Shown: one piece after another, positions 23,612 through 53,892 of the stretch | Position numbering within the stretch: position 1 is the first letter of the stretch | Layout of the letters: every line of letters starts with the position of its first letter | DNA from: Thermoplasmata archaeon | Lineage (GTDB): Archaea > Thermoplasmatota > Thermoplasmata > Thermoplasmatales > Thermoplasmataceae | Assembly (NCBI GenBank): GCA_021810045.1 | Contig: JAJZJR010000003.1 | Span: 90,189-154,188, forward strand | Reading direction: 5' to 3' | DNA: 64,000 nucleotides | Notes under the pieces: model-generated | Databases searched by the model: none | Seen by the model: only the letters and a program-made list of their open reading frames with translations | What the model was told of the DNA's origin: nothing | Translations under genes and position numbers: made by a program

Positions 23612-23917
23612 ATGGACTACTCGGGCTTTATAATACCACTACTTGCATTTGTGGATGGTTTACTTTTCGGGTTGGCGATTAAAAAAGGAATTGTATCATT
23701 TGTGCTCCTTTTAGTAGCATTTGTCGTTTCAAGTTATTTGGGATTCACAGTTATTTCCAATCACACAATAACGACTGCGTTCAATTTCATAACCACGTTT
23801 GTATCGTCCCACATACAATCTGTTACATCCCTGATACCTATTGGCAGTGCAGGAGCCATATCTCTAGTCGCTGTCCTTTTTATAATAGGATTGGGCATTG
23901 GAATATGGAAAGGATGA
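23612..23917 (+). CDS. Small three-helix membrane protein (paralogue of 40.9 kb)
   Basis: A 101-residue hydrophobic protein with helices at about 5-24, 27-47 and 77-98. LLFGLAIKKGIVSFVLLLVAF and the terminal IIGLGIGIWKG match LLIGLAIKKGFLAVVLGIVGY and IGLVAGLLKG of the small membrane protein at 40.9 kb in the ESCRT-like cluster, so the two are paralogues. Function unknown. An AGTCTGACA motif upstream could place it under the regulator before it. Confidence 0.65.
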   Translation: MDYSGFIIPLLAFVDGLLFGLAIKKGIVSFVLLLVAFVVSSYLGFTVISNHTITTAFNFITTFVSSHIQSVTSLIPIGSAGAISLVAVLFIIGLGIGIWKG

Positions 23918-37043: not shown

Positions 37044-37054
37044 TTAAATATAAA
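37044..37054 (+). promoter_or_regulatory. TATA box for the kinase-phosphatase-ATPase unit
   Basis: TTAAATATAAA centred about 28 bases before TTG 37078, fitting a start of transcription at or just before that codon. Confidence 0.5.
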
Positions 37055-37077
37055 CCAGCCTAAAATTTAAATTCTAT

Positions 37078-38745
37078 TTGCTCCTTAAAGAAATGCAGGT
37101 GATTTTTAGGCCAAAAGTTATGCTTGATCAGGAGAAGGCTGATGTTATTGACCTTGTTTCAAAGGATATCCGTGAATTAAAAAAACACTGCAAAAATGAT
37201 CCGCTTCTTCAAAACACAATCAGGGAATTGTCGGGAAGCATTAAGGACCTCAAGAGTCCTCACCTTGATTATGGCGGGCGCGTTCAGCTGTTGGTAAGCA
37301 CATTGCACAGGTACGCTTCCCTCGACATATGCAGGACCCTTAAGGGAGAAGATTACAGTAAGCGTTTCCTGGATTATGCCAATAAATTCAAGGGGGAAAT
37401 AACACCAGAAGTTGAAACAGTTGAATGGCGGCCTGAGAATACCAAAGAGTCGGATTACGGTTTTCCAGAATCTTTAAGGGACAAATACCACTTCGATGCA
37501 TATATTGGAGAAGGAGGTTTTGGCAAAGTTTATCGTGTTCTATCCAGGCAATCGGGACACAAATCAGCAATAAAGGTGATCGAGAATAAAACCGAGTCTG
37601 GTGGCCACTCATTCATTAATGAAGTCACCACCTGGCAGAACCTATTGCATGATTTGAAACACGGGAATATTGTGGAGATTATAGATGCCAATATTTCACC
37701 AACTCCCTACATAGAAATGGAGTATATCGACGGGGGAATGTTGGGGAGCCTTGCATTCCCTATGAAAAGGGAAGACGCTCTCTGGATTATCTTCAGGGTT
37801 CTGGATGGTCTGAAATATGCCCATGATCACAAGATACTTCACCTGGACCTCAAACCAAACAACATTCTTCTCACAAAGGACGGGGTTCCAAAAATAGGTG
37901 ATTGGGGCCAGTCAAAACTATATACTGATCATTTGGGTGGCCGATTCAGGAATATTGGATTTACAATGGCTTATGCAGCCCCTGAACAGGTACTTCAGGG
38001 TTACGGAAACAGTTCCTTCGCCACCGATATCTATCAGATAGGAACCATATTGTATCAGTTACTAACAGGAAAACACCCGTTGAAACTAAATTATGAATCA
38101 TTCAACGAGTTTACCAGGGAAATGGAAACCCAACAGCCGGTCCCCCTTTCTGGGATATCTGAGACTTTGAGCGACATTGATCCGGTAGTATCAAAGTGTC
38201 TTAAGAAAAGACCTCAAGACAGGTACTCCAATGTCATGGAACTCAAGAAAGATATAGGCAGACTGCTGGGTTTTGAGGAAGAAAAAAGAGAGGAAAAGGT
38301 CAGCGATAAATCAATGAATGCGGCCCAAAGTCCCGTTGGCCAGAACCATAGTGAGTGGAAACAGGAATCTACCGGGAATATTCCAAGAAATAACCATAGT
38401 GGGGACCCAACAAAAAACATCAATATCAACATAAATCTTTCCGGCAGCATGCCTAAGAGGGAGCCTGAAACACTGGACAACAAATCCGGAATTGACCCGG
38501 AAAAAACACGTTCTCTTCCTTTTGCCGTTGGTGAACTCAGGACTCTTTTCAAGACTAAGGATTACGCCGGGGCCTACAATTTTATTTCAAATCACCTGGA
38601 TTACATAAGAGAAAAAAAGCCATCGTGCATGAAACAGCTTGAGGAAAACATCCTGCCTAATCTTGAAGTCAAGGTAAGGTTTGGATTCGACTTTTCCCAC
38701 ATGGAAAAAAATGTGGAAAGTTTTCTCTCGTGCCTCGAGAAATAG
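37078..38745 (+). CDS. Ser/Thr protein kinase (Hanks type) of the ESCRT-like cluster
   Basis: A 555-residue cytoplasmic kinase without membrane helices. Helical N-terminal domain (1-130); kinase domain (about 137-395) with glycine loop GEGGFGKVY (143-151), the ATP-anchoring Lys in AIKVIE, HLDLKPNN (HLD in place of HRD), GDWGQSK (DWG in place of DFG) and AAPEQV; a polar linker (about 400-470) with an Asn/Ile run; and a helical C-terminal domain. Catalytic Lys, Asp and Asn are kept, so it should be active. TTG 37078 fits the TATA box; ATG 37093 is an alternative. It heads the unit with a phosphatase and an AAA ATPase, suggesting reversible phosphorylation of cluster proteins. Confidence 0.9.
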   Translation: MLLKEMQVIFRPKVMLDQEKADVIDLVSKDIRELKKHCKNDPLLQNTIRELSGSIKDLKSPHLDYGGRVQLLVSTLHRYASLDICRTLKGEDYSKRFLDYANKFKGEITPEVETVEWRPENTKESDYGFPESLRDKYHFDAYIGEGGFGKVYRVLSRQSGHKSAIKVIENKTESGGHSFINEVTTWQNLLHDLKHGNIVEIIDANISPTPYIEMEYIDGGMLGSLAFPMKREDALWIIFRVLDGLKYAHDHKILHLDLKPNNILLTKDGVPKIGDWGQSKLYTDHLGGRFRNIGFTMAYAAPEQVLQGYGNSSFATDIYQIGTILYQLLTGKHPLKLNYESFNEFTREMETQQPVPLSGISETLSDIDPVVSKCLKKRPQDRYSNVMELKKDIGRLLGFEEEKREEKVSDKSMNAAQSPVGQNHSEWKQESTGNIPRNNHSGDPTKNINININLSGSMPKREPETLDNKSGIDPEKTRSLPFAVGELRTLFKTKDYAGAYNFISNHLDYIREKKPSCMKQLEENILPNLEVKVRFGFDFSHMEKNVESFLSCLEK

Positions 38746-38812
38746 CTGTGGGCAATTAAAATTCCATTCCTGATTTATTATGCCCATAATTTCCTAAACC
38801 TGTGGGGGGACT

Positions 38813-39643
38813 TTGTTGCAATCTTTTTATCTTTATGTGGAAAATCAAATTCATGACTTGCTGAAAGCTTATTATCTCAAAGTGAAGGGAATGCCTTCTC
38901 TTGTCGATATCCACACAATCGAGAGAAAAGGAAAAATTGCCATCATTGGCGATTCCCATGGAGATTTCAGTAGCCTTGCATCAGCATTTCAAAAGATTCC
39001 CAAAGGTGCTCCTGTAGTAATTCTTGGAGATCTTGTAGACAGGGGTGAAAATGGACTCCTGAATCTGCTTCTCACAGTTGAATTCTCACTCATAAATCAC
39101 TCAATATATTACTTGAGGGGCAACCATGAAACACGCCTCATGAATATGGAATATGGATTCTATGAGGAATTACTTGTCCATGATCTTTCCCAACTGTATC
39201 CTGAAATTCTCTCAGTTTTTTCAGTACTGCCTTACGCGGGTTTGTGCAATGACCGTTTATTCATGGTACATGCCGGAATACCAAAGGAAGCTGTTAGACT
39301 TGACCAGATAAGAGAACTGCCAAGGGGATTCGATGACCCCAATGATACATTAATCATGCAACTTCTCTGGAATGATTTTGATGAGAGAACAGTTGAATGG
39401 AAATACAGTGAAAGAGGTCCCGGCATTTACATTATAGGAAACAAAATAGTGTACAATTTTTTGAAAGACAACAGGGTGGATCTAATTGTACGAGGACATG
39501 AAATACCCAAAGCTGGAATATACTACAGTTTCTCAAATCACCTGGTAACCGTTTCCTCATTCCAAAATTCCAGGGCCAGGGCGAAGTTTCTCATGATTAT
39601 TTTTGATGATAAACTTGAATTTGAAGAGATATCGCTCCCCTGA
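38813..39643 (+). CDS. PPP-family (PP1/PP2A-like) protein phosphatase
   Basis: A 276-residue metallophosphatase with all PPP signatures in order: GDSHGD (about residue 45), GDLVDRG (72), LRGNHE (101), HAGI (152) and RGHE (228). This is the eukaryote-like protein Ser/Thr phosphatase family; it removes phosphate from Ser/Thr using two metal ions. The TTG start at 38813 has GGGGGGAC just upstream. It lies 67 bases after the kinase gene and 85 before the AAA gene, so it likely reverses the neighbouring kinase. Confidence 0.9.
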   Translation: MLQSFYLYVENQIHDLLKAYYLKVKGMPSLVDIHTIERKGKIAIIGDSHGDFSSLASAFQKIPKGAPVVILGDLVDRGENGLLNLLLTVEFSLINHSIYYLRGNHETRLMNMEYGFYEELLVHDLSQLYPEILSVFSVLPYAGLCNDRLFMVHAGIPKEAVRLDQIRELPRGFDDPNDTLIMQLLWNDFDERTVEWKYSERGPGIYIIGNKIVYNFLKDNRVDLIVRGHEIPKAGIYYSFSNHLVTVSSFQNSRARAKFLMIIFDDKLEFEEISLP

Positions 39644-39728
39644 ATTGATAAAATCTGCCTGTTAATCCTTTTTCCAATGCGGACAATAAGAAATTAAATA
39701 AAGACATAATCATATAACAACTGAAAGA

Positions 39729-40871
39729 ATGGAAACCAAGGAACTTCTTCAGTTTACATATGATCATCTTCAAAGGGCCCAGGATTTGGAGACAAAGAAA
39801 GATTATACCTCGTCGGCAGCAGAATATCTTGAAGCATCCAAATTTCTGTTTGAGGCTGCATCAAAATCCACAGGCGAAATAAAGAAAATCAGGGTTGAAC
39901 AGGCTGAGAAACTACTTAAGAAATACAGAGAAATAAAGGAACTGAAGAACAGTGAAAAAGACGGAAAGATCAAAACGTCTGAAAACCCCGGAAAAAATCA
40001 GGAAGCTTCCACTTTTGAGGATCTTGGTATCAACATAAACAACGTTCCGGAAATCACTTTTGAAGATGTCGCAGGCCTGGATGAAGTTAAAGCTCAGATA
40101 ACCACCAAAGTCATCTATCCATCCAAGCAGCCTGAAACTGCCAAGAAATTTGGAGTTTCGTCCGGAGGTGGTATCCTCTTATATGGACCACCTGGAACAG
40201 GTAAAACCCATATTGCCAGAGCCATAGCACATGAGGCGAAGGCAACCTTCATTTCCATAAACCCTTCCACCCTTCTGAGCAAGTGGTTCGGTGAATTTGA
40301 GAAGAACATTGCTTTGCTCTTCTCGCTTGCCAGGGAACATTCCCCATCATTGATATTTTTCGATGAAATTGATTCGCTTTTTCCAAAGAGAAGCAAGAAC
40401 AATTCATCTGTCATGGCCAGGGCAGTACCACAAATGCTCAGTGAAATGGACGGTTATTTCAAGGACATCAGTAAACCGGTTCTCGTGATAGGAGCAACGA
40501 ACAATCCATGGGATATGGATGAAGCAGTTCTCCGTTCCGGGAGATTTGACGAGAAAGTGTATATCGGCCCACCGAGCCTTGAAGCCAGAAAGAGAATATT
40601 TGAAATAAACAGTGCAAGCAGGCCTGTAGAGGATAATGTGGACCTGGATTACCTGTCCAAAATTACGGAAGGTTACAGTGGAGCAGATATTTCATACATC
40701 TGCAGAAAGGCCGCTGAAACAGTTTTTCGTGAGGTTGTGGAATCAGGAAAGGAGAGAAAGATTAGCCAGTCAGATTTTGTGACCGTTATACACAACACAG
40801 GGCCGTCGATTACTTCAGAAATGATAAGTAAATACAGGAAATTCGAGGATTTCCTGAAAGAAGCAAAGTAA
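39729..40871 (+). CDS. MIT-AAA ATPase, Vps4/CdvC-like
   Basis: A 380-residue AAA+ ATPase of the meiotic clade. Residues 1-75 form an MIT-like three-helix domain (YTSSAAEYLEASKFLFEAA, then QAEKLLKKYREIKELK). A linker leads to ITFEDVAGLDEVK, Walker A GPPGTGKT (about 152-159), Walker B LIFFDEIDS, sensor ATNNPWDMDEAVLRSGRFDEK with the Arg fingers, and a C-terminal Vps4-type helix (SEMISKYRKFEDFLKE). Vps4 proteins disassemble ESCRT-III filaments by binding C-terminal MIM motifs through MIT, and two ESCRT-III-like genes lie opposite. The stop is two bases from the convergent small membrane gene. Confidence 0.9.
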   Translation: METKELLQFTYDHLQRAQDLETKKDYTSSAAEYLEASKFLFEAASKSTGEIKKIRVEQAEKLLKKYREIKELKNSEKDGKIKTSENPGKNQEASTFEDLGININNVPEITFEDVAGLDEVKAQITTKVIYPSKQPETAKKFGVSSGGGILLYGPPGTGKTHIARAIAHEAKATFISINPSTLLSKWFGEFEKNIALLFSLAREHSPSLIFFDEIDSLFPKRSKNNSSVMARAVPQMLSEMDGYFKDISKPVLVIGATNNPWDMDEAVLRSGRFDEKVYIGPPSLEARKRIFEINSASRPVEDNVDLDYLSKITEGYSGADISYICRKAAETVFREVVESGKERKISQSDFVTVIHNTGPSITSEMISKYRKFEDFLKEAK

Positions 40872-40873
40872 TC

Positions 40874-41182
40874 TCATCCTTTCAATAAACCTGCAACCAG
40901 GCCTATTGCAAACAGTATCAGGCTAAATGTCACCGTGAGGTGGGTAAATGTCAGCACCTGAGTGTAATGGGTGGCTGTTGAGGTGAATGAGGAAGTAAGA
41001 CCCGATGTATTGAATGTGGGAATAAATGGCAGATTAATGTATGACGCAACTATGTAACCTACGATTCCAAGAACCACAGCCAAAAATCCTTTTTTAATTG
41101 CCAGCCCTATTAGAAGCCCTGAGACAAGGGTCAACAGGAGGATCACATATTGTGTGTACTGGCCAAAATAAGCAGTAAGCAT
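40874..41182 (-). CDS. Small membrane protein of the ESCRT-like cluster
   Basis: A 102-residue three-helix membrane protein, paralogous to the one at 23.6 kb (shared GLAIKKG and terminal GLxxGxxKG). ATG 41182 is chosen because AGGTG lies just upstream of it; a start 30 bases earlier would add a short polar extension. It is the last gene of the minus-strand run, 94 bases after the GAP1-like gene, and could be a membrane receptor for the complex. Confidence 0.65.
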   Translation of the reverse strand: MLTAYFGQYTQYVILLLTLVSGLLIGLAIKKGFLAVVLGIVGYIVASYINLPFIPTFNTSGLTSSFTSTATHYTQVLTFTHLTVTFSLILFAIGLVAGLLKG

Positions 41183-41276
41183 CTTTTTACACCTAGTAAA
41201 AATATATTCCATAGAGGTATATGAAAGTTCTCTCCATTATGGATAATAAGTTAATATTCTATTGACAGAAATAATT

Positions 41277-42929
41277 CTATTTCAATTTACCTGCAAGCTT
41301 ATCAAGATCTTTCTGCTCAATCCCTTTTTCCTTAAGATCCTGGGCAAAAGACAGGACCATCTCCTTTTCACTGTTACTGACGGAGCTTTTCACCTTTTTA
41401 ATCAGGGATTTGTATATGTCTAAACCCGTATCTGGCTCGAAGCTGTCAGATTTCATGTATTCCGTTAAAAATTCGATGCACTCCTTGGTTCCGTGGTCCA
41501 CATTTGCCTTGAAATAAACACTTTCAACAAATTTTCTTATGGATTTACGGTCATCCATCATATCCAGTATTGGAGTAATTTCACTGAATGGAACAAATTC
41601 TCCTCTCCTGGAAACATACTTTACCCAGTCATCCAGTACAGCTGGGTTGCCCGCAATAAATCCAGATAAAGCCTGGTCAACCCTGTCACTTTTGTGCTCC
41701 AAAAATGAATTGAACAGGAGGTTGTATTGCGGTGTGAATCTCTTCACCCTGGATGTGTGGATGACGATCTTCATGAACCTGTCAATGGCTTCCTTGTTAT
41801 CGATTGCCAGAATCATTCTGAATCCTTCCTCGAAATTCCTGTTGAAGGTATCCTGTTCGGTTGAATCACTCACAACTGTTTCGAAATAAGACACGTACTG
41901 GTCTAGATTCTTCGGGTCTTTTCCAGCTTTTATGAGGTAAGATCTGTATTTCTGCCTTAGGGTGGGATCAATGGGATTTTCATAAAGTCTTATGATTGTG
42001 GGTAAAACCGGGTTTTCTTCCATATTTGTTTCAAGAACAGCAAATCTGATTCTTTCAAGTGAACCTGATGATGTTCTGTAAGCACCATATTTTTCGTAAA
42101 TTGAACGCACCCTGTTCATATTTCCATTCAACAGATAGTCTGCAAGCTCCCTCAATTGGTCTGTAATATATGATGGATTATATGGAAAATAAGCACCTGT
42201 TGGGTCTATGAGCAAGTAATGCTGAGATGAGAATGTGCCGTCCATGAGTTTTTTGGACGGTGCAAATATGACCCTGAAGACTGAAAACTCAGTGGGATAT
42301 GCATTTGAGAATGTTGAAAATGAAATGGGCAGAATATCCCCGGGAATCAAACGGTATATTAGATCTGTTATCATGAATTCTGTGTAGCCAGATACTTCGC
42401 CGTCTATGCCAATGACAATATTGGTACCACCCTTGAACAAATGCTGTAGTAATGCAGCAAGGATATTTCCACTCTTGAACACATCGTGAACAGACCGCTG
42501 CTGCATAGAATTCCTCTCAACTATTATGGGTGGTAAACTGATAATGCGTCCTTTGAATGCCTGAATGAGGATGTCTATACTTTTTTCATCCTTTACAAAA
42601 CTCTTGTACAGATCAGAAAGGAAAAGTTCACCATTACTGATGGCTGATGCCGGGAAAATGATGCTGTGGCTGTAGTATGTCCCGCTTCTTCCCAGGAGAT
42701 CTTTTCCTGCAGAAGCTATGAAACTTACAGAGAGTTTTCCCGAGGGAAGAATATAGCCTCTTATACAGCTCCTGAAGTCCCCTGTTGAAAATGAATTTGG
42801 CAGGGCATTTGAACTTGCGAAATTAAGATCATCCCTGCTCAGGCCTTCAGTAGCAGCAATTATCTGGTAACCTCTCCCAGAGCTTTCTCCCGCCCAGGCA
42901 AAAACTATCTGATCATATCCCTCTTGCAT
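41277..42929 (-). CDS. GTPase-associated protein 1 (GAP1)-like protein
   Basis: A 550-residue soluble protein. The first ~230 residues resemble the GAP1 N-terminal domain: QIVFAWAGESSGRGYQIIAATEGL, then FRSCIRGYILPSGKLSVSFI, RSGTYYSHSIIF and LPISFSTFSNAYPTEFSVFRVIFAP. The rest is helical and repetitive, as in GAP1 middle and C-terminal regions. In bacteria GAP1 proteins are encoded beside specialised GTPases in NTP-dependent conflict-type systems; here the gene starts two bases after the GTPase gene, with GGAGGAT as a strong ribosome site. That RBS makes ATG 42929 the likely start rather than 42950. Confidence 0.75.
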   Translation of the reverse strand: MQEGYDQIVFAWAGESSGRGYQIIAATEGLSRDDLNFASSNALPNSFSTGDFRSCIRGYILPSGKLSVSFIASAGKDLLGRSGTYYSHSIIFPASAISNGELFLSDLYKSFVKDEKSIDILIQAFKGRIISLPPIIVERNSMQQRSVHDVFKSGNILAALLQHLFKGGTNIVIGIDGEVSGYTEFMITDLIYRLIPGDILPISFSTFSNAYPTEFSVFRVIFAPSKKLMDGTFSSQHYLLIDPTGAYFPYNPSYITDQLRELADYLLNGNMNRVRSIYEKYGAYRTSSGSLERIRFAVLETNMEENPVLPTIIRLYENPIDPTLRQKYRSYLIKAGKDPKNLDQYVSYFETVVSDSTEQDTFNRNFEEGFRMILAIDNKEAIDRFMKIVIHTSRVKRFTPQYNLLFNSFLEHKSDRVDQALSGFIAGNPAVLDDWVKYVSRRGEFVPFSEITPILDMMDDRKSIRKFVESVYFKANVDHGTKECIEFLTEYMKSDSFEPDTGLDIYKSLIKKVKSSVSNSEKEMVLSFAQDLKEKGIEQKDLDKLAGKLK

Positions 42930-42931
42930 GT

Positions 42932-44518
42932 TCAATCCTCCAGCATCCACCTGACCAGGTCAGGAAGTTGCCCATATGGTCCGGCCCCTCCTTTTATCGT
43001 AAGAGATTTGATTCCGTTGACCAGATTGATCCTGGGCTTGTTTTCTTCTGTTACCTCAATACCAATCCTGAAAGTTCTTACGCTGGAAATTGAGAAGTGT
43101 TGAATCAGATACTGATATATATGGCTCAAATCACGTTTAAGGAGTGTCTCAAGAGAAGTGCTCTTTGCTTCATCCGGAAGTCGGTCGTATTTTGTGAATA
43201 CTACTGCCACAGGTTTCTTCACCTTCTTTTTGCCGTTAAGATAATACAGTGACTTGAAAATATTCAGATAGTCAAATTGAAGTGTTATCCAGTCTGAATA
43301 GTTTTCACAGTCTATTGTAACAATATATTGGGACGTCCATTTCAGATATGCCACCTGAGGCAGTGTTGAAATAAGCCTGTTGAGTGCCTGTGGAGTTTCA
43401 CCCTCTTCGGCGAGTCTTGCCCAGGTTTCTCCTGATGCATCATTCAGTCTCAGGTCAACTTTCTTTGTTCTTATACCAGATTTCCTCGACAGGGTCATGT
43501 TTGTTTCAGTTCTCAGTTCCCCTACCATTGTACCGCTAGGCCATTCACCTGAAAGCATTCCTTTTATGGAATCCCTGAGGACCGGAGAAACTGATTCCAG
43601 GGTGAAAGAGTAACCCGGTATTTCATTAATGTAAGCTGATGCATAAACAAACAAAGTAATGAGCGTAGTTTTACCTCCGCCTGAATACCCCACTACTGCA
43701 ACAGTGTTGCTGTTCTTATCGTACTGGACCCTTGGTGTACTGGAAGGACCTGCATTCACATTTGGTTTCCCCTGCCCTGAATATATCTGCTGTTGGTTGT
43801 TTCCCACATTGGGATTTACATTTGGAGGATTCTGGTAAACGCTTTCAGAATGTCCACCTGAATAAGCTGCACCCACAGGCTGTCCCTGGGGAGAAGCATT
43901 GTTTGTGTATCTCTGTGATGAACTGGAAATTCCTGATCTGGTTCTGGCCCGTCTGATGGTTCCGAGCTGCCACCTGGAGATAAGCCAGGCGAATAAAAGG
44001 AAGAATATGCCTACAAAGGTCAATGCTAAGACTCCAGTGTCAGGTCCTCCAAAGAAATCAGAATTATAAGGAACCCTGAAGTTATCGGTCATTGAGAGAA
44101 GCAGGGTTAACTGCAATGCAATAAGGAGAAATATTCCCGGGTAGGTTTTTCCATTCTCCTTTTTCGTGTATGAATATATCACAAGGGCAAAGCCTGTGGT
44201 GAATACCAGGCTTAAAATAAATGCCACATCCGGTGGAGCAACACCACTGACGCTGTAAGATGGAAAAAGAAACGATGCAATGAGAAGAAAGATAAAGAAT
44301 ACACTGGAAGACCTCTCAGTGGAATTTCCAGCTACCCTGAGCAACCCATGGACAATATAGGCGAGGTATATGACCATGAAAGTCACACCTATGTCTGTGA
44401 CAATATTGCCAAGGCCAAAGACAACGTATTCTTCGAGATCATAGAATGGCAATGCCATGACAAGCAGTACAGCAAAAGCAATGGTGTATATGGAGGAGCC
44501 CGGGGGGCGTGGATCCAT
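42932..44518 (-). CDS. Membrane-anchored GTPase
   Basis: A 528-residue protein. Residues 1-185 hold about six membrane helices; 190-255 is an Asn/Gln/Ser/Pro-rich flexible linker; 258-528 is a P-loop GTPase with VVGYSGGGKTTL (about 273-284), a G3-like LNDASGE (about 357-363) and the G4 motif FTKYD (about 440-444). The final TIKGGAGPYGQLPDLVRWML resembles the tail of double-GTPase proteins linked to GAP1. It shares one base (TAATG) with the upstream ESCRT-III-like gene and is two bases from GAP1, so the three are translated together. It probably recruits or times the complex at the membrane. Confidence 0.8.
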   Translation of the reverse strand: MDPRPPGSSIYTIAFAVLLVMALPFYDLEEYVVFGLGNIVTDIGVTFMVIYLAYIVHGLLRVAGNSTERSSSVFFIFLLIASFLFPSYSVSGVAPPDVAFILSLVFTTGFALVIYSYTKKENGKTYPGIFLLIALQLTLLLSMTDNFRVPYNSDFFGGPDTGVLALTFVGIFFLLFAWLISRWQLGTIRRARTRSGISSSSQRYTNNASPQGQPVGAAYSGGHSESVYQNPPNVNPNVGNNQQQIYSGQGKPNVNAGPSSTPRVQYDKNSNTVAVVGYSGGGKTTLITLFVYASAYINEIPGYSFTLESVSPVLRDSIKGMLSGEWPSGTMVGELRTETNMTLSRKSGIRTKKVDLRLNDASGETWARLAEEGETPQALNRLISTLPQVAYLKWTSQYIVTIDCENYSDWITLQFDYLNIFKSLYYLNGKKKVKKPVAVVFTKYDRLPDEAKSTSLETLLKRDLSHIYQYLIQHFSISSVRTFRIGIEVTEENKPRINLVNGIKSLTIKGGAGPYGQLPDLVRWMLED

Positions 44519-45159
44519 TAGGAGTTTTCACCTTCCCCGGAACGGCTATCCTCTTTTTCTTGGTTATCCTCACCGGGTGAAGGTCCTGATTCTGTCCGTT
44601 TCTGTTCACCTGATTCAGTGCCATGGGAATGAACGGATTCCTTTTCTGCCCCATCGTTCCTGGCATCTGCTTCATCCCACAGGTGCATGTAATCATCAAG
44701 CGGATCTGAGACAGACAATTCACTGCTGGTGTCCAGGCTGGCTATTCCGGTAAGCTTGGCAAGCATCTCTTCCTCAGAGAGTGATTTTTCAGAAATAGCC
44801 TTTTCAAGTTCTTCAAGGTCAACATCGGATGTGACCTTCTTCACTTCTTCCAGGTCTGAAGATTCTGTCTTTATTGTCTTCAATTTCTGTAAGGCAGCTG
44901 AACCTAGTTCCAGCCTGCTCAGAAGTTTCTTCTGTGAAGCGATTTCTGAATCAATGGATTTAATCCGGAAGGCAATATTTCTTCTTTCCAGCTGATCTGC
45001 GTTCCTCCCACTCTCAATATATTTTTCCATCTGCTTTTCAAGGGATTTCAGCATCGCCATTGCAGAAATTCTTCTTCGTTCCAAACCATCTGCACGACTG
45101 TCTATTTCTTTCATGGAAATTTTTCCAATACCAGATTTATCCTTTTTTCTCCTGAACAT
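44518..45159 (-). CDS. ESCRT-III/Snf7-like protein B
   Basis: A 213-residue coiled-coil protein with ESCRT-III-like architecture: a very basic N terminus (FRRKKDKSGIGK), a long helical hairpin (about residues 20-85: RRRISAMAMLKSLEKQ, then RRNIAFRIKSIDSEIASQKK), a shorter helical region (95-140) and a ~70-residue acidic disordered tail (SGEQKRTESGPSPGEDN). Basic core plus acidic tail is the autoinhibited design of CHMP/CdvB proteins. No clear MIM is visible. It overlaps both neighbours by one base. Similarity is by pattern, not by close sequence match. Confidence 0.6.
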   Translation of the reverse strand: MFRRKKDKSGIGKISMKEIDSRADGLERRRISAMAMLKSLEKQMEKYIESGRNADQLERRNIAFRIKSIDSEIASQKKLLSRLELGSAALQKLKTIKTESSDLEEVKKVTSDVDLEELEKAISEKSLSEEEMLAKLTGIASLDTSSELSVSDPLDDYMHLWDEADARNDGAEKESVHSHGTESGEQKRTESGPSPGEDNQEKEDSRSGEGENS

Positions 45160-47090
45160 CAGTTTAACCTCCTGGAAACCACTTTCATTTTGCTGATCCT
45201 CTTCACTTCAATCTCTTTGTTCCTTTTCATGCCGTCAGCTATGTACTCAAGCAGGTCTATGGAAATACCTGCCTCCTTGGAAATTCTCTCAAGAGAGACG
45301 TCATCCGTGCGTGCAATGTAATCTCTGATTGCCTTTCTTGCTCTGTCTTCTCTTTCCTGCCCAAGCTCCAGATTGAACAGTTTTGAAATCAGCTCGTCTT
45401 CAACTTTCCTGTTTGGCCTGGCATCTGACAGTTTCCTGTCAATTAGGAAGAGGAATATGTTGTCCAGAAATATCCTGTTGTCACCAACAACCCTGGAAAG
45501 GACTCTCTCTTCAAAGCCTGTGGGTGAGTAAATACCAATATATGCAGTCTTGTTGGAAGAACCTAGTTCGCCTTTGATGGATTCAAAAATCTCCAAAAAT
45601 TCAGACAGGGATACTGGCCTGCTGTCCAGAAGGTCCCTCTGGAAAAGATTTCTGTGAGTATAGAATACAAAACCCACTGAAACTTCCATGGGATCTCCAA
45701 TAATCCTGTTTTTTCTGAAATGGTAAAGGTTGGCCTGCATGAAGTTTCTGTCCTCGTCCGGGGACTGTTTTACCTTCAAAGCAGTTTCAAGGGCATATTT
45801 AGAGCCGATCTTGATATTGCCATCCTCATTGAGATCCTTAAGGGTGAATGGAAGAGCCTCCTCCATTTTTCTCCTGAATCTGTAAATGAAACTTATTCCG
45901 TCTGCAACGGCTTCATCTATTCTGACAAGAGAGCCCGCCTCTTCGGCACTGTTCACATCAGAGGCCCGATCGAGCCTTTCTTCAGTTATCAGTACATGAC
46001 GTCTTGTCTCATTCTCGATTTCCTCGAGTCTCTTCCTGGAAACCAGGATTTCTTCAAGCCTTTGTCTCAGATAATCTGCCTGACTCCTGAAAATGGCAAG
46101 TGCCTTGGGATCGGTTTCAGTGGTTGATCGCATCTCTATCTGGTGGATGAGGCTGTTTCCCCTGTCTATGAGAACGGATACCTCAGCTATTTTCCCTTCA
46201 ACCTCAACATGGAAGGTTTTGTGCATTTCAAGGAGATTTGCCTCAAGCTCCTTGATCCTGTTCAATGGTTCATGGAAATCGGATACCTCCTTCAGGGAAT
46301 CCTGAAGTCGGGAGATTTTTTCCTTAATGTCTGATTCCTCGGTTTCAACTTCATAATAACGGTTTTCAATTTCATGTATAGGCATGGAGTTGAAGCTGCC
46401 TGTTATTTCCTCCCAACCATTCTGGGCTTCATAAAACCGCGAAGCAACATCATCATATTGATTGAACAGTTTGGCTGGTGCTACAGCATCATGTGACATG
46501 TACTGTACCACGCCTTCCCTTAGTGTTTCAAACCGGCTGTTGTACCTGTCTATTAGGGCTTTCTTAATTGTATTTCTCATTCTGGATTCCGGTGCGGCAT
46601 CAATAAGCAGATTGAACTCATACATCTGGGAATTGTACCATTTCCGGATAATCTCGTAAATTTTCCCCTCCTTTCGTTCCAGTGCTTCCCTCACATTGGC
46701 AGGGTTTAGTGCATCCAATCCGGAAAACTGCTCCAGTTTTGAAATTCCATTGAATTCCTCTTCAGAATATCTGGAAATAAAGTCACCGATGGGACTGCCA
46801 GGATCATGATCCTCTCCGGAAAGCTTAGCGGAATATGCCAGTTTCAGGAGAGCGAACTGGAATTTGGAGAGAAGGCTTCGCATATATTCCCGTTCATACC
46901 TGAAGGCACAGGTTTCCTCGAATCTTGCCTGTGAGGTCTGGATTTCATTTATTTTCCTTACCTTCCACTGGAGGTCCTTCTCTGAAATATCCCTCAGATC
47001 CATTTCATCCAGAACCATCAGCAGGTTCAGGAATTCACGGCAGGGTGATGATTCCCCATCGGCTCCGGAATTGAAACTGTTTGATTCCAT
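45159..47090 (-). CDS. Large coiled-coil protein with C-terminal winged helix
   Basis: A 643-residue cytoplasmic protein, the largest of the cluster, of no family I recognise. Residues 1-230 are helical; 235-400 is a coiled coil (KISRLQDSLKEVSDFHEPL, DYLRQRLEEILVSRKRLEE); 410-570 is a folded domain with strands (VSVGFVFYTHRN, KTAYIGIYSPTGFEER, IFLFLIDRKL); and 580-640 looks like a winged helix (ARKAIRDYIA, SLERISKEAGISIDLLEYIADG, EIEVKRI). Winged helices also link subunits in ESCRT-II and CdvB proteins. GGAGG five bases before the ATG and zero spacing to the preceding gene show coupling. Confidence 0.7.
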   Translation of the reverse strand: MESNSFNSGADGESSPCREFLNLLMVLDEMDLRDISEKDLQWKVRKINEIQTSQARFEETCAFRYEREYMRSLLSKFQFALLKLAYSAKLSGEDHDPGSPIGDFISRYSEEEFNGISKLEQFSGLDALNPANVREALERKEGKIYEIIRKWYNSQMYEFNLLIDAAPESRMRNTIKKALIDRYNSRFETLREGVVQYMSHDAVAPAKLFNQYDDVASRFYEAQNGWEEITGSFNSMPIHEIENRYYEVETEESDIKEKISRLQDSLKEVSDFHEPLNRIKELEANLLEMHKTFHVEVEGKIAEVSVLIDRGNSLIHQIEMRSTTETDPKALAIFRSQADYLRQRLEEILVSRKRLEEIENETRRHVLITEERLDRASDVNSAEEAGSLVRIDEAVADGISFIYRFRRKMEEALPFTLKDLNEDGNIKIGSKYALETALKVKQSPDEDRNFMQANLYHFRKNRIIGDPMEVSVGFVFYTHRNLFQRDLLDSRPVSLSEFLEIFESIKGELGSSNKTAYIGIYSPTGFEERVLSRVVGDNRIFLDNIFLFLIDRKLSDARPNRKVEDELISKLFNLELGQEREDRARKAIRDYIARTDDVSLERISKEAGISIDLLEYIADGMKRNKEIEVKRISKMKVVSRRLN

Positions 47091-47582
47091 TTATGCTCCT
47101 CCAAATATTTCCAGGTTCTCCCTGAATTCATCACGCAGCATTTCCGCTGCCTCAGGAGCACCTTCCAATTGAATTGTGACACCAGCGGGAATTCCAGATG
47201 TCAGGGTTATTGATGCCTTCACATTTCCTTTCCTGGTGATGAAGGAATAACTGTTTGTATTCCCGTATGAATCTGTAACAATGCCTTTTCTCCTGGATAC
47301 CAGATAGGAGAGAAACGATGACACCTCCTTCTCATTCTTGTTGATCTTCAAGCTGAAGGAAATGGATTTTATTTCAGGTTCTATGCTTAACTCTGATAGT
47401 GAAAAAACCCTTACCTTATCCGGTTCAATCTTATGGGTCAGTTCCCTGATGAGAGGATCATAATTTTCATCCGAAACCATGAACATGTAGCCCTCCGGCT
47501 TGTTTGTCCCATCTTTCCATTTGGAGACTATGTATTCCACCTTTTTCCTCTCGGACTCTGAGGCATAGTTAATCAGTACCAT
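47091..47582 (-). CDS. Unknown alpha/beta protein, first gene of the second minus-strand unit
   Basis: A 163-residue soluble protein with no recognised family. It may contain two small alpha/beta domains (MVLINYASESERKKVEYIV, then SISFSLKINKNEKEVSSFLSYL). ATG 47582 is preferred over TTG 47588 because the TATA box at 47604-47613 lies 26 bases upstream, giving a leaderless start. Its stop directly precedes the 643-residue gene. Confidence 0.6.
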   Translation of the reverse strand: MVLINYASESERKKVEYIVSKWKDGTNKPEGYMFMVSDENYDPLIRELTHKIEPDKVRVFSLSELSIEPEIKSISFSLKINKNEKEVSSFLSYLVSRRKGIVTDSYGNTNSYSFITRKGNVKASITLTSGIPAGVTIQLEGAPEAAEMLRDEFRENLEIFGGA

Positions 47583-47603
47583 GTACAACTTACCACTCGT
47601 GTA

Positions 47604-47613
47604 TTTTATATTT
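47604..47613 (-). promoter_or_regulatory. TATA box for the unknown-to-GAP1 transcription unit
   Basis: Minus-strand AAATATAAAA centred 26 bases before ATG 47582. It separates this unit from the one ending at 47681. Confidence 0.5.
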
Positions 47614-47672
47614 AATGAACATAAATACTTTGTCCATGATGGAAGTTAAATAAATTTTACATTTTGGAAATT

Positions 47673-47691
47673 ATGAGAAGTTACTTCTCAT
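47673..47691. repeat. Palindrome at the 3' end of ESCRT-III-like gene A
   Basis: ATGAGAAGT-T-ACTTCTCAT has perfect nine-base arms and spans the stop codon of the 47681 gene. It could act as a transcript-end hairpin between the two minus-strand units. Confidence 0.45.
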
Positions 47692-48337
47692 TTTTCTCGT
47701 TTTCTATGTCCTTGATTCCGTCCATTATCCTCTTGTCAAGTTCAGATTCTGCTTTGTCACCGGCATCTGACTTTTCAGGGGTGGATTTAAGGTTGACACT
47801 GGATTTTTCCTTATCTACAGTCATTTCGTCTATTGTTCCCATTATGTTTTCCAGTTCCTTCGAGGAAACATTGTCGAAGTCAGCCATCCTGTCGCTCATT
47901 GTGTCAAGAACATTGTCCAGTATATCGCCAAGCTGCTGTGAGTTGGAGATGGCTTTTTCCAGGTCGAAAGAAACGGCCTTCATCTGTTCAAAGCTAACGG
48001 AATCATCTTCATAGGAAGCAGCAAAATCCTTGAATGTACTGGCAAGATCTTTCCATATCCCCAGCTGTTCCCTGCTGAGTTCCATGTCGTTCATCATGAG
48101 AAGAAAGCCTCTGGCTCTCTTTAGCTGGTTGTCAAGGGCCATTATTCTCATTGCAAAACGCTTGGCAAGCTGTTCATTTCCAAGACGCTTGGCATCAACA
48201 GCCTGATCGAGATATTTTTTCCTCAGGTTTTCGCACTTGTTTGAATACTTCTCAACTGCGTCCTTGGTTCTCCTCAACCTGAGCTTGCGTTCCCATTCAA
48301 CTTCCTCCTTACTCTTTTTTTTCTTAAATGGCCCCAT
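47681..48337 (-). CDS. ESCRT-III/Snf7-like protein A
   Basis: A 218-residue protein with the clearest ESCRT-III layout of the pair. Basic start (GPFKKKKSKEEVEWERKL); helical hairpin at about 20-115 (DAVEKYSNKCENLRKKY, then GNEQLAKRFAMRIMALDNQL, matching the AxxxxKxGNxxxAxxY-like turn of CHMP/CdvB); helix alpha3 (QLGIWKDLASTFKDF); a region about 125-165 (VSFEQMKAVSFDLEKAI, LGDILDNVLDTMSDR) like the CHMP 'M-D-E-I...ALD' helix; an acidic linker; and a terminal SELDKRIMDGIKDIE resembling a MIM1 motif (L..RI...IK). This suggests binding to the MIT domain of the cluster's AAA ATPase. It starts directly after the preceding gene's stop. Confidence 0.7.
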   Translation of the reverse strand: MGPFKKKKSKEEVEWERKLRLRRTKDAVEKYSNKCENLRKKYLDQAVDAKRLGNEQLAKRFAMRIMALDNQLKRARGFLLMMNDMELSREQLGIWKDLASTFKDFAASYEDDSVSFEQMKAVSFDLEKAISNSQQLGDILDNVLDTMSDRMADFDNVSSKELENIMGTIDEMTVDKEKSSVNLKSTPEKSDAGDKAESELDKRIMDGIKDIENEKNEK

Positions 48338-48949
48338 TTATTCCACCTTCATTATCTCGTTGTAGAAATCCTGCTTTCTGTTCAGTTCTTCCAGGTAGTT
48401 TTTCATCATTGATGCATCCACCGACTTTTTCTCTATTTCCTTGTCGAGCTCTGTGATTTGCTTTTTGCTTACATTGTTGAGTGTGGACCAGACTCCCTTT
48501 TCGGAGAGATATTCTTTTCTCTCCAGCAGAAGTTTCAGATTTTTAACAAACTCAAGCCTCAAAAGCAGATCATCATATATTGCCCTGGCCTGTTCCAATT
48601 CTTTCTTCCTGTCTTCAAGAAGGATCTTTGCTCTATCATCTGTCCCACTCTTCTGGCAGTCTTCCTCGAGCAATTTGACCCCGGTGTTGAGCTGTTCCAA
48701 CCGGTTTTCCTGTTGCAATATCTTATTGTCCAGTTTCAGTGTTTCCAGGGTAAGGGTCTTCCTGTTGAGCCTGTTTAGTTTTTTCCTGAAAAGTTTTCTG
48801 TAAAGCACGTAAAATGTCAACAGATACGGTGCCGCAATAGGCAGCAACGCCAACTGACCAAAGGATTGAAGGCCTAATGCTACCTTTGATATATTATCGC
48901 CGGCAATCCTGCCCACATAGTTCAGGATCTGCAGATCATCATCCTTCAT
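48338..48949 (-). CDS. Membrane-anchored coiled-coil protein
   Basis: A 203-residue protein with a membrane helix at about residues 25-50 (FGQLALLPIAAPYLLTFYVLY), a basic stop-transfer (RKLFRKKLNRLNRK), and then about 145 residues of coiled coil (LDNKILQQENRLEQLNTGV, ERKEYLSEKG, ITELDKEIEKKS). No known family. Its stop abuts the start of ESCRT-III-like A, so it may be the membrane-recruiting partner, as CdvA is for CdvB in Sulfolobus. That analogy is inference; there is no sequence similarity to CdvA that I can see. Confidence 0.65.
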   Translation of the reverse strand: MKDDDLQILNYVGRIAGDNISKVALGLQSFGQLALLPIAAPYLLTFYVLYRKLFRKKLNRLNRKTLTLETLKLDNKILQQENRLEQLNTGVKLLEEDCQKSGTDDRAKILLEDRKKELEQARAIYDDLLLRLEFVKNLKLLLERKEYLSEKGVWSTLNNVSKKQITELDKEIEKKSVDASMMKNYLEELNRKQDFYNEIMKVE

Positions 48950-52337: not shown

Positions 52338-52681
52338 ATGAACTACCATTTTGTATGGTGCCCGAAGTATAGAAGAAAAGTCATCACAGAGAAGGTGGTA
52401 ATGAGACTCAAAGAGCTGATAACATCTATTTCGAGGGAAAATGGATGGGAAATCATAGCTCTGGAGACGATGCCCGATCATGTCCACAGTTCATCAAGAC
52501 CCCTCCCACGGTGGCACCCAATAACATAATTGGGAGGATAAAAGGTACAACCTCAAGGCTGCTCAGGGCGGAATTTCCTGAACTGAAGAAAAGGTTGCCC
52601 ACACTATGGACACGTAGTTATTTTGTGTCCACACATGGGCATGTTTCTTCAGAGACTATAAAGAAATAAGTGGAGGAACAG
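52338..52681 (+). pseudogene. tnpA: Inactivated TnpA (frameshift and lost catalytic tyrosine)
   Basis: The N-terminal part reads HFVWCPKYRRKV and MPDHVH, the HUH motif, up to about 52480. There one base is missing and the frame moves; the remainder (FIKTPPTVAPNNIIGRIKG, then SYFVSTHGHVSSETIKK) continues in the next frame. It ends at TAA (52667-52669) exactly where the catalytic tyrosine codon should be, and the bases after it still encode VEEQ. The region before ATG 52338 also encodes TnpA-like residues (TSVHF) without an ATG, so the start may be lost as well. Confidence 0.8.
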
Positions 52682-52689
52682 AAAGGGGT

Positions 52690-53892
52690 ATGAAGGCATA
52701 CAGGTTCAGGCTGTACCCATCCACAGAGCAGGAGAAGAAGCTCAACGAACAGCTGGAGTCGTGCAGACAGCTGTACAATTCATTCCTGCTTGAAAGAAGA
52801 TATGCATACAGGGGAAACAAGAAATCCCTCACATACAATCATCAGCAGAATGAGATACCTGAACTGAAGAATGCTTTTGAGGAATACAAACAGATTCATT
52901 CCCAGGTCCTTCAGGACGTTGCACGGAGAGTGGATCGTGCATACCAGAACTTTTACCGGAGGATCAGGGAGAAGAAACAGGGTGTCAAAAAGAAGGCAGG
53001 ATTCCCACGACTGAAGGGAAAAGGACAGTATAACTCACTGACCTATCCTCAGTCAGGATTCCATCTGCTGGAAAACGGACACCTGAAGCTATCAAAGATC
53101 GGAGAACTGAGAATGTTCCAGCACCGTGACATTGTTGGCGAGATCAGGACACTGAACATTTCCCGTGAACAGACCGGGAAATGGTACGCATCATTCTCAG
53201 TGAAACAGGACAGTATATCCTTTCATCCTGAACATACGGGCAACACCATCGGAATAGATGCAGGCTTGTTGCATCTTTCAACTATGAGTGACGGAACTGT
53301 GATCGATCCCCCTCACTTTCTCATGAAAAGCGAGAAGAGGATCACAAAGGCACAGAGGAGCCTTTCACGCAAGCAAATAGGATCAAGCAACAGGAAGAAA
53401 GCTAGAATCACTCTCTCGAAACAGCATAAGAAGGTAAAGGATCAGAGAGAGGACTTTGCACACAAGCTTTCCAACAGGCTTGTGCAAAACAATGATCTCA
53501 TTGTCTTCGAGGACCTGAACATAAGAAACATGGTCAAAAACCACTATCTTGCAAAGAGCATTGCGGATGCTTCATGGAACACCCTGATACAATACACAAC
53601 CTACAAGGCTGAAAGTGCCGGTAAGCTTGTGGTATCAGTGGATCCGGGAAACACATCACGCACCTGCTCAAGGTGTGGATGGAAAAAGGAATCACTTGGA
53701 TTGTCCGAAAGGACATTTCATTGTGATTCCTGCGGTCTTGATATCGATCGGGATCTCAATGCCGCAATCAACATCCACAATCTTGGACTGATAAAAGTAG
53801 GGAGGGGCACTCCCGAAGTTACGCCTGTGGAGATTGGGGCACTACCCGCAAGGGCATCCCTGATCGGCGAAGCAGGAAGCCCCGCCCGATAG
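52690..53892 (+). CDS. tnpB: RNA-guided nuclease TnpB (element 3)
   Basis: A 400-residue TnpB very close to that of element 1 (for example SCRQLYNSFLLERRYAYRG in both). RuvC residues (GIDAGLLHL, IVFEDLNIRNM, DIDRDLNAAINI) and the zinc ribbon (CSRCGWKKES...CDSCGLDID) are intact. The frame has survived while its tnpA has decayed, as expected if TnpB itself maintains the element or has a host-beneficial role. Confidence 0.9.
   Translation: MKAYRFRLYPSTEQEKKLNEQLESCRQLYNSFLLERRYAYRGNKKSLTYNHQQNEIPELKNAFEEYKQIHSQVLQDVARRVDRAYQNFYRRIREKKQGVKKKAGFPRLKGKGQYNSLTYPQSGFHLLENGHLKLSKIGELRMFQHRDIVGEIRTLNISREQTGKWYASFSVKQDSISFHPEHTGNTIGIDAGLLHLSTMSDGTVIDPPHFLMKSEKRITKAQRSLSRKQIGSSNRKKARITLSKQHKKVKDQREDFAHKLSNRLVQNNDLIVFEDLNIRNMVKNHYLAKSIADASWNTLIQYTTYKAESAGKLVVSVDPGNTSRTCSRCGWKKESLGLSERTFHCDSCGLDIDRDLNAAINIHNLGLIKVGRGTPEVTPVEIGALPARASLIGEAGSPAR

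What the first reader, a model, noticed from the sequence alone, without database searches (positions are those of the whole stretch)
37044..48949. Eleven-gene ESCRT-like/GTPase/kinase module: candidate undescribed membrane-remodelling system
Three forward genes (Ser/Thr kinase, PP1/PP2A-like phosphatase, MIT-AAA ATPase) converge with eight reverse genes (small membrane protein, GAP1-like protein, membrane GTPase, two ESCRT-III-like proteins, 643-residue coiled-coil/winged-helix protein, an unknown, membrane coiled-coil protein). Spacings of -1, 0 and 2 bases show tight coupling in the reverse block, and the two blocks abut by two bases. Seen: the motifs and the spacing. Known: Vps4-type AAA proteins disassemble ESCRT-III filaments; GAP1 proteins pair with specialised GTPases. 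Inference: one machine in which a GTPase recruits ESCRT-III-like filaments to the membrane, the ATPase recycles them, and the kinase/phosphatase pair sets activity. Possible roles are vesicle release, division, repair, or defence by membrane disruption.
Basis: partly seen in the sequence, partly recalled or inferred. Interest (0 to 1): 0.94.

Follow-up and report, generated by a model that had tools for sequence, protein, structure and literature searches.

The report
GTPase-gated ESCRT membrane machine in archaea
In a Thermoplasmata archaeon, genes for an ESCRT kit (a filament protein and the ATPase that takes such filaments apart) sit beside genes for a GTP switch predicted to be anchored in the membrane and for its partner protein, and the same set recurs in related archaea; the switch would most likely decide where and when ESCRT filaments bend or cut membranes.

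Summary
The eleven genes are real. Sequence searches identify a Snf7-family ESCRT-III protein, a Vps4-type AAA ATPase with an MIT-like N-terminus, a DO-GTPase with predicted N-terminal membrane helices, a GAP1-N2-like partner, a kinase and a PP1/PP2A-type phosphatase. The 643-residue protein is modelled as helical domain, coiled coil, globular domain and winged helix, the layout published for arCOG09748 of the archaeal "Main" ESCRT systems.

The conserved unit is five genes, not eleven. Among 13 distinct contigs with this GTPase, all carry the 643-aa protein and a Vps4. GAP1 is present in 12 of 12, and ESCRT-III in 11 of 11, whose contig reaches far enough. In 292 Thermoplasmatota genomes, strong hits to the GTPase and to the 643-aa protein fall in the same 5. 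The kinase was found in 2 loci, the phosphatase in 1. The second "ESCRT-III" has no sequence support.

Seven of 7 module genomes tested also carry FtsZ-family genes, which argues against the main division machine. Both halves were published separately (ESCRT with kinase and phosphatase; DO-GTPase/GAP1); my searches found no report joining them. Verdict: a new ESCRT variant, most likely gated by a membrane GTPase. Its function is inferred.

The parts
37078..38745 (+). Ser/Thr protein kinase (555 aa), accessory: found in 2 of 13 loci
   Evidence: Pfam PF00069 148.4 bits; HLDLKPNN and GEGGFGKV motifs, DWG in place of DFG; frame opens at 37054; of the other loci only L025 has one
38813..39643 (+). 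PP1/PP2A-like metallophosphatase (276 aa), accessory: found only here among 13 loci
   Evidence: Pfam PF00149 102.6 bits; GDSHG, GDLVDRG, RGNHE; single-sequence HMM, no hit in the other loci
39729..40871 (+). Vps4/CdvC-type AAA ATPase (380 aa) with MIT-like N-terminus: core gene
   Evidence: AAA 142.6 bits and Vps4_C 20.7 bits, just under its cut-off of 21.3; CdvC model 235 bits; N-terminal family profile matches PDB Vps4 MIT domains, best 7e-4; Walker A GPPGTGKT and FFDEID
40874..41212 (-). Small protein (112 aa) with three hydrophobic segments; relatives beside GTPase-type and minimal ESCRT loci
   Evidence: relatives in L025, L028 and in L031 (a minimal ESCRT locus)
41277..42950 (-). GAP1-N2-like GTPase-associated protein (557 aa): core gene
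   Evidence: PF20013 22.7 bits, cut-off 24; 4 of 7 family members match PF20013 at E<=0.01, best 2.3e-7; alignment of 7
42932..44518 (-). DO-GTPase (528 aa) with predicted N-terminal membrane helices: core gene
   Evidence: PF19993 37.6 bits, cut-off 27; 6 hydrophobic segments; GYSGGGKT, DASGE, TKYD
44518..45159 (-). Coiled-coil hairpin protein (213 aa), possible second filament protein
   Evidence: AF2 helices 16-51 and 56-99, mean pLDDT 63.5, single sequence; structural ties include CHMP3/Snf7 but also BAR domains and plain coiled coils; no ESCRT-III sequence match; relative in L025, weak HMM hit in L035 (E 3e-4), probable one in L028 (hhalign 88.8%)
45159..47090 (-). 643-aa helical/coiled-coil/globular/winged-helix protein, arCOG09748-like in layout: core gene
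   Evidence: AF2 mean pLDDT 82, pTM 0.50, 17 sequences; winged helix at about 577-643; in 13 of 13 loci
47091..47588 (-). 165-aa protein of unknown family; candidate counterpart of arCOG08177 (not tested)
   Evidence: no Pfam or PDB sequence match; relative in L025
47681..48337 (-). Snf7-family ESCRT-III protein (218 aa) with MIM1-like tail: core gene
   Evidence: PF03357 29.8 bits, over cut-off; 7 of 10 module ESCRT-III proteins match Snf7 at E<=1; profile matches PDB Vps24; tail DKRIMDGIKDI
48338..48949 (-). 203-aa coiled-coil protein; relatives in 2 other loci
   Evidence: L025, L026; no Pfam family over cut-off; hydropathy scan found no membrane segment over threshold

Best explanation
This locus encodes an archaeal ESCRT system (a Snf7-family ESCRT-III protein, a Vps4-type AAA ATPase and a predicted coiled-coil/winged-helix adaptor) whose conserved neighbours are a DO-GTPase predicted to span the membrane and its GAP1-like partner, and it most likely works as a GTP-gated membrane-remodelling machine in which the GTPase and GAP1 would decide where and when ESCRT-III filaments assemble. 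Shown here: the families, the recurrence of the five genes, conserved GTPase and ATPase motifs, and FtsZ-family genes in 7 of 7 module genomes tested. Inferred: the GTPase in its GTP state, with GAP1, recruits or releases the 643-aa adaptor at the membrane; the adaptor's winged helix or coiled coil nucleates ESCRT-III; Vps4 binds the MIM1-like tail through its MIT domain and recycles the filament; where present, kinase and phosphatase modulate this. The likely outcome is membrane repair, vesicle budding or protein sorting rather than the main division event.
For: Families. Recurrence: 13 distinct contigs hold the GTPase (window included); 643-aa protein and Vps4 in 13 of 13 (one Vps4 is a contig-end fragment), GAP1 in 12 of 12 whose contig reaches it (one split between two frames at a contig end), ESCRT-III in 11 of 11 that reach far enough. 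Strong hits to the GTPase and the 643-aa protein fall in the same 5 of 292 genomes. Pairwise divergences are correlated: GTPase vs 643-aa protein r=0.98, vs Vps4 0.97, vs GAP1 0.90, vs ESCRT-III 0.94. Hydrophobic N-terminal segments in 7 of 7 GTPases scanned. P-loop in 13 of 13 and TKxD in 12 of 12 complete GTPases. Layout of the 643-aa model agrees with that published for arCOG09748. FtsZ-family hits in 7 of 7 module genomes tested. Published precedent for each half: ESCRT-dependent and, separately, GTPase-dependent vesicle budding in archaea (passages).
Against: No direct evidence of interaction or of membrane activity. GAP1-N2 scores just under Pfam's cut-off in the window protein. Module Vps4s are not one clade: the window's groups with L025 and one of two in L028, while most others group near the minimal-ESCRT Vps4s, so the ATPase may be exchangeable. 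Kinase and phosphatase are not conserved. A simple MIM1-like pattern is found in only 5 of 11 ESCRT-III tails. Distance correlations are inflated by shared ancestry, and where a locus has two Vps4 or two ESCRT-III genes (L026, L028) I chose one. Vps4 and ESCRT-III occur without this GTPase in other Thermoplasmatota (10 of 292 genomes with Snf7 over cut-off), so ESCRT does not need the GTPase. The GTPase profile's best PDB matches are mostly ABC P-loops, so no solved relative supports its fold. Only 1 of 11 PDB rows for the module-only ESCRT-III profile is an ESCRT-III protein, though it is the best one.
Confidence: 0.58

Rival explanations
1. It is a conflict (anti-virus) system: the GTPase-GAP1 pair senses infection and the ESCRT filaments are the effector that blocks virus exit or disrupts the membrane.
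For: DO-GTPase/GAP1 pairs are predicted conflict systems with variable effectors, and GAP1-N2 systems often sit with filament formers such as tubulin (passages of PMC7159879). Patchy distribution: 3 of 6 genomes of the genus examined have the GTPase. A gene on the right flank is found in none of 5 congeners, and one on the left only as weak hits in 3 of 5.
Against: No FNIII partner or toxic effector domain in Pfam scans of the eleven proteins. PADLOC: 8 of 10 proteins scanned match nothing; the kinase and the AAA protein match kinase and AAA models (mad6, PD-T4-6, IetA and the like), as their domains would. The 7 flanking genes scanned belong to no known defence family by Pfam.
Confidence: 0.2
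2. It is a cell-division (Cdv-like) system.
For: ESCRT-III and Vps4 divide TACK archaea, and minimal ESCRT is proposed for FtsZ-less Thermoplasmata (PMC10936438).
Against: 7 of 7 module genomes tested carry FtsZ-family genes. The 5 of 22 genomes without an FtsZ hit lack a strong GTPase hit; 4 of those 5 have one Snf7-family gene, and the 3 of these loci mapped are minimal type.
Confidence: 0.07
3. The forward block (kinase, phosphatase, Vps4) and the reverse block are separate systems that happen to abut.
For: They are convergent; kinase and phosphatase are rare in the other loci; the Vps4 lineage differs among loci.
Against: A Vps4 gene sits in 13 of 13 loci with the GTPase and the 643-aa protein, in several gene orders. 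So this can hold for kinase and phosphatase at most.
Confidence: 0.08
4. It is a protein-sorting or quality-control system in which the AAA ATPase mainly unfolds membrane proteins and the coiled-coil proteins are adaptors, not filaments.
For: The AAA protein's best PDB sequence matches are Cdc48/VCP-type ATPases; published authors propose protein sorting for complex archaeal ESCRT loci.
Against: The 218-aa protein is a Snf7-family member with a MIM1-like tail.
Confidence: 0.07

Closest known systems
Archaeal 'Main'-clade ESCRT systems (Makarova et al., mBio 2024, PMC10936438)
   Same: Vps4 with MIT, ESCRT-III, a coiled-coil/winged-helix protein of the same predicted layout as arCOG09748, and in many genomes a kinase and a phosphatase
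   Different: GAP1 does not occur in the text (listing) and 'GTPase' occurs twice in the main text, the one passage seen being about FtsZ; Thermoplasmata are credited with a minimal system (Vps4, ESCRT-III, arCOG07400). Relationship to arCOG09748/08177 was compared by layout only, not by sequence
DO-GTPase/GAP1-N2 conflict systems (Kaur et al., eLife 2020, PMC7159879)
   Same: Adjacent DO-GTPase and GAP1 genes, membrane-spanning GTPase in some, a kinase/phosphatase theme in some
   Different: No FNIII partner or usual effector found by Pfam; ESCRT-III/Vps4 stand where tubulin, HSP70 or effectors stand
Minimal Thermoplasmata ESCRT (PMC10936438)
   Same: Vps4 and a Snf7-family protein, same taxonomic group
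   Different: No GTPase, GAP1 or 643-aa protein found near it in the 5 minimal-type loci mapped (17-20 kb each); no match in the window to a profile of the small gene beside Vps4 in those loci
Gammaproteobacterial psp operons with a DO-GTPase (mSystems 2024, PMC11237479)
   Same: A DO-GTPase beside an ESCRT-III superfamily member (PspA) (passage)
   Different: Bacterial; the passage on these operons names no Vps4, GAP1 or winged-helix adaptor
ArvA small GTPase that drives vesicle formation in haloarchaea (Mills et al., PNAS 2024, PMC10927574)
   Same: A GTPase acting in archaeal membrane budding (passages)
   Different: Arf-like small GTPase with ArvB and ArvC partners; the passages describe it as an alternative to ESCRT

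Membership tests
Archaeal ESCRT system | ESCRT-III (Snf7-family) protein | tested here: met
   PF03357 29.8 bits, over cut-off (30.4); PDB profile match to Vps24
Archaeal ESCRT system | Vps4-type AAA ATPase with MIT domain | tested here: met
   AAA and CdvC models (CdvC 235 bits is under its equivalog cut-off of 650); MIT by PDB match of a family profile, although Pfam MIT was not found in the window protein
'Main'-clade ESCRT system | arCOG09748 coiled-coil/winged-helix protein | tested here: inconclusive
   Predicted layout agrees; no arCOG09748 sequence was at hand
'Main'-clade ESCRT system | arCOG08177 Cas2-like + TBP-fold protein | not tested
   165-aa protein has no Pfam or PDB sequence match; not folded
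'Main'-clade ESCRT system | Vps4 groups with the Main clade in a tree | not tested
   No Main-clade reference sequences in the tree
DO-GTPase/GAP1-N2 system | DO-GTPase | tested here: met
   PF19993 37.6 bits, cut-off 27; 7 of 7 family members match DO-GTPase1 and 6 of 7 DO-GTPase2 at E<=0.01
DO-GTPase/GAP1-N2 system | Adjacent GAP1-N2 protein | tested here: inconclusive
   Adjacent; 22.7 bits, just under cut-off 24; 4 of 7 family members match at E<=0.01; the genome search rates it over cut-off with its neighbours in the frame
DO-GTPase/GAP1-N2 system | FNIII-repeat partner and typical effector | tested here: not met
   No FNIII or effector family listed by Pfam for the eleven proteins (for the AAA protein only the best 25 of 38 families were shown); fast-evolving repeats could be missed
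Cdv cell-division system | CdvA partner | not tested
   No CdvA profile was run; FtsZ-family genes are present
Minimal Thermoplasmata ESCRT | arCOG07400 beta-barrel beside Vps4 | tested here: inconclusive
   Profile of the small gene beside Vps4 in 5 minimal loci finds nothing in the window; its identity with arCOG07400 is assumed from position

The most novel reading that the evidence does not exclude
ESCRT-III is the filament arm of a DO-GTPase/GAP1 switch: a membrane-embedded GTPase directly gates ESCRT-III assembly in archaea, with ESCRT-III standing where tubulin stands in bacterial GAP1-N2 systems. GTPase-controlled ESCRT would then exist outside eukaryotes, built from other parts.
Probability: 0.35. 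Interest if true: 0.85.

Novelty: new variant of a known kind. Interest (0 to 1): 0.64.

Why it matters
How archaeal ESCRT systems that do not divide cells are recruited to membranes is, to my knowledge, open. A conserved membrane GTPase with a partner protein, encoded with ESCRT-III and Vps4, gives a concrete, testable recruiter. It also links a family filed under biological conflict to membrane remodelling, and gives Thermoplasmata a complex ESCRT system beyond the minimal one described.

Tried and rejected
Eleven-gene unit: rejected as the conserved unit. By HMM over the stretches held (about 5.5-22 kb each besides the window), kinase is in 2 of 13 loci, phosphatase 1, 112-aa 3, 203-aa 3, 165-aa 2, 213-aa 2 plus a weak hit in L035; hhalign adds a probable 213-aa relative in L028. 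Profiles of these genes rest on 1 to 4 sequences, so diverged copies could be missed.

643-aa protein: Foldseek gave no PDB match at E<=0.001; the winged helix rests on high-probability short matches there and.

Relation to a haloarchaeal locus: a Halomicrobium urmianum plasmid has a Vps4-like gene divergent from a 528-aa protein with five hydrophobic segments and P-loop, DYAGE and TKAD motifs, but DO-GTPase2 scores only 15.1 bits (cut-off 27) and profile comparison was not significant. Its coiled-coil neighbour did not match our ESCRT-III profile. The seven other plasmid loci opened showed no such GTPase by motif, but that ORF picker dropped true genes in GC-rich DNA (the L081 Vps4-like gene itself), so this absence is weak.

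Rows dropped: one of 6 genomes (G247, 18.8 bits over 69 positions, stops inside), 99 of 104 genomes whose best match is at most 27.4 bits. In one search the TMCC-p214 match is circular (shared member) and not used.

Limits of the searches: protein database searches returned 6 relatives of the 643-aa protein and 3 of the GTPase at E<=1e-10, each list counting the window's own protein, and scored only the about 8000 candidates sharing most words. The genome-contig scan with the single GTPase found nothing; the one that worked used two peptide patterns from four close relatives, so finding only Thermoplasmata does not show absence elsewhere. Two flank genes were not well conserved in the genus, so no empty site could be shown.

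Papers: PMC10936438 abstract (in part), passages and section 5 in full; PMC7159879, PMC11237479, PMC12134362, PMC10927574 passages only; all others search listings. The statement that no report joins DO-GTPase/GAP1 with ESCRT rests on searches of an open-access library, of which 20, 20, 4, 20, 11 and 20 papers were listed. Supplements were not read.


Full report
What is there. The window lies at G000:C67:90189-154188 of a 2.26 Mb genome in 81 contigs. The eleven ORFs are present. Gaps are tight for most, not all, of the reverse block.

Identity of the parts. Pfam and NCBIfam give a protein kinase, a metallophosphatase, a AAA ATPase of the Vps4/CdvC kind, a DO-GTPase (37.6 bits, cut-off 27), a GAP1-N2-like protein (22.7 bits, cut-off 24) and a Snf7 protein (29.8 bits, cut-off 27.3). 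A profile of 10 module ESCRT-III proteins, without the minimal-type ones, has Vps24 as its best PDB match (E=3.4e-4), the only ESCRT-III among 11 rows; Snf7 is the Pfam family that most members match, 7 of 10 at E<=1, best 1.9e-7. With minimal-type relatives (and the two 213-aa-type proteins) added, 7 of 10 PDB rows are ESCRT-III: Vps24, CHMP1B, CHMP1A, CHMP2A and CdvB. The tails end in a MIM1-like pattern, for example DKRIMDGIKDI in the window; a simple pattern found it in 5 of 11 tails, while the other 6 have a related but not matching helix. That this is a Vps4-binding motif is recalled knowledge of MIM1. A profile of Vps4 N-termini matches solved Vps4 MIT domains (best 7e-4), after Atg38 and among TPR proteins; Pfam finds no MIT in the window protein.

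The GTPase and GAP1. Seven of 7 GTPases scanned have 4 to 7 N-terminal hydrophobic segments. The D-x-x-G-E/D motif is seen in 7 of 7 aligned sequences, the P-loop in 13 of 13 and TKxD in 12 of 12 complete ones. This agrees with the published DO-GTPase description of a glutamate in the Walker B motif and of forms with N-terminal membrane segments. GAP1 lies next to the GTPase in 11 of the 12 loci that have it; in L035 it is about 5 kb away. In 4 of 7 aligned GAP1s the GAP1-N2 model matches at E<=0.01, best 2.3e-7.

Do the genes travel together? Among 292 Thermoplasmatota genomes drawn from the phylum, a 643-aa profile hits 6, of which 5 are strong. A GTPase profile hits 104, of which 5 are strong (E<=1e-20) and the rest at most 27.4 bits. 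The strong sets are the same five genomes. A scan of named genome contigs added six distinct loci, all from Thermoplasmata or Thermoplasmatota MAGs, one labelled Cuniculiplasma; its patterns were narrow. Together with two same-genus genomes this makes 13 distinct contigs, window included. All have the GTPase, the 643-aa protein and a Vps4 (one a contig-end fragment). GAP1 is in 12 of 12 whose contig reaches it (one split between two frames at a contig end), and ESCRT-III in 11 of 11. Gene order differs between loci, so the link is not mere synteny of close kin. Other genes vary: a 473-496-aa protein, weakly HEAT-like in two of the three scanned by Pfam, in 8 loci; a TPR protein in one; a second 798-aa GTPase-like protein in 3; kinase in 2; phosphatase in 1. 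Pairwise divergences of the five core proteins correlate at r=0.73 to 0.98. Shared ancestry alone would give part of that, and in L026 and L028, which have two Vps4 and two ESCRT-III genes, one of each was chosen.

What it is not. Ten of the 292 genomes have a Snf7-family hit over the Pfam cut-off without a strong hit to this GTPase. The five such loci that I mapped have Vps4 and ESCRT-III without GTPase, GAP1 or 643-aa matches, as in the published minimal system. Among 22 genomes tested, FtsZ-family genes are in 7 of 7 module genomes, and the 5 genomes without an FtsZ hit lack this module; the six MAGs were not tested. This follows the published reasoning that ESCRT in FtsZ-bearing archaea need not divide cells, and argues against division as the main role. 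PADLOC finds matches only to kinase and AAA models, in 2 of 10 proteins scanned.

Tree of Vps4. 28 ATPases, IQ-TREE: the window's Vps4 groups with L025 and one of the two in L028 (support 91/89); most other module Vps4s group near the minimal-type ones. The ATPase seems to have been exchanged within this group, which weakens a strict one-lineage story but not the recurrence.

Mechanism. Most likely: GTPase and GAP1 at the membrane set when the adaptor and ESCRT-III assemble, and Vps4 recycles. No step of this is shown. Published GAP1-N2 systems often sit with tubulin-type proteins and were read as pointing to regulated assembly of cytoskeleton-like structures. ESCRT-III would be the filament here. 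Vesicle budding by ESCRT (Sulfolobales) and by a small GTPase (haloarchaea) are known separately in archaea.

Novelty. Each half is published; six literature searches showed no paper that joins them. The nearest seen is a DO-GTPase in some bacterial psp operons. I class it as a new variant of archaeal ESCRT.

Noticed in passing
L024:9113-10828 (-), own genome G000:C67:36612-38327, outside the window: A 572-aa protein fuses a TFIIB-like transcription factor (zinc ribbon and TFIIB repeats) to a DO-GTPase domain that is 44% identical to the module GTPase of genome G003. Among 81 genomes searched only G000 shows a match over the whole fusion; the others listed match one half at a time.
   Followed up: partly
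L030:9429-17963 (genome G321, another Thermoplasmatota family): A neighbourhood with a DO-GTPase, a GAP1-M protein, a GAP1-N2 stretch and an HSP70-VWA protein, like the published HSP70 theme of GAP1-N2 systems, with no match to our ESCRT profiles.
   Followed up: partly
L081:6447-10260 (Halomicrobium urmianum plasmid): A 528-aa protein with five hydrophobic segments and GTPase-like motifs is divergent from a Vps4-like ATPase gene and a coiled-coil gene; possible second GTPase-ESCRT pairing.
   Followed up: partly
L083:1-4655 (Candidatus Chlorohelix plasmid): A bacterial Vps4-like ATPase follows two short unidentified genes and precedes a kinase gene.
   Followed up: no
window 23612-23917 (+): A 101-aa relative of the 112-aa small membrane protein, away from the ESCRT locus (90 bits).
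   Followed up: no
window 52338-53892 (+): IS200/IS605-type element: a short transposase-like fragment (named from its sequence by recall) and a TnpB.
   Followed up: no
L027:3960-6356, L029:4045-6441, L073:14783-17179: A second GTPase-like protein of 798 aa in three of the loci, next to the ESCRT-III gene; about 15 predicted hydrophobic segments in the two scanned (L027, L029); DO-GTPase1 19.7 bits in L027, under the cut-off of 27.
   Followed up: no
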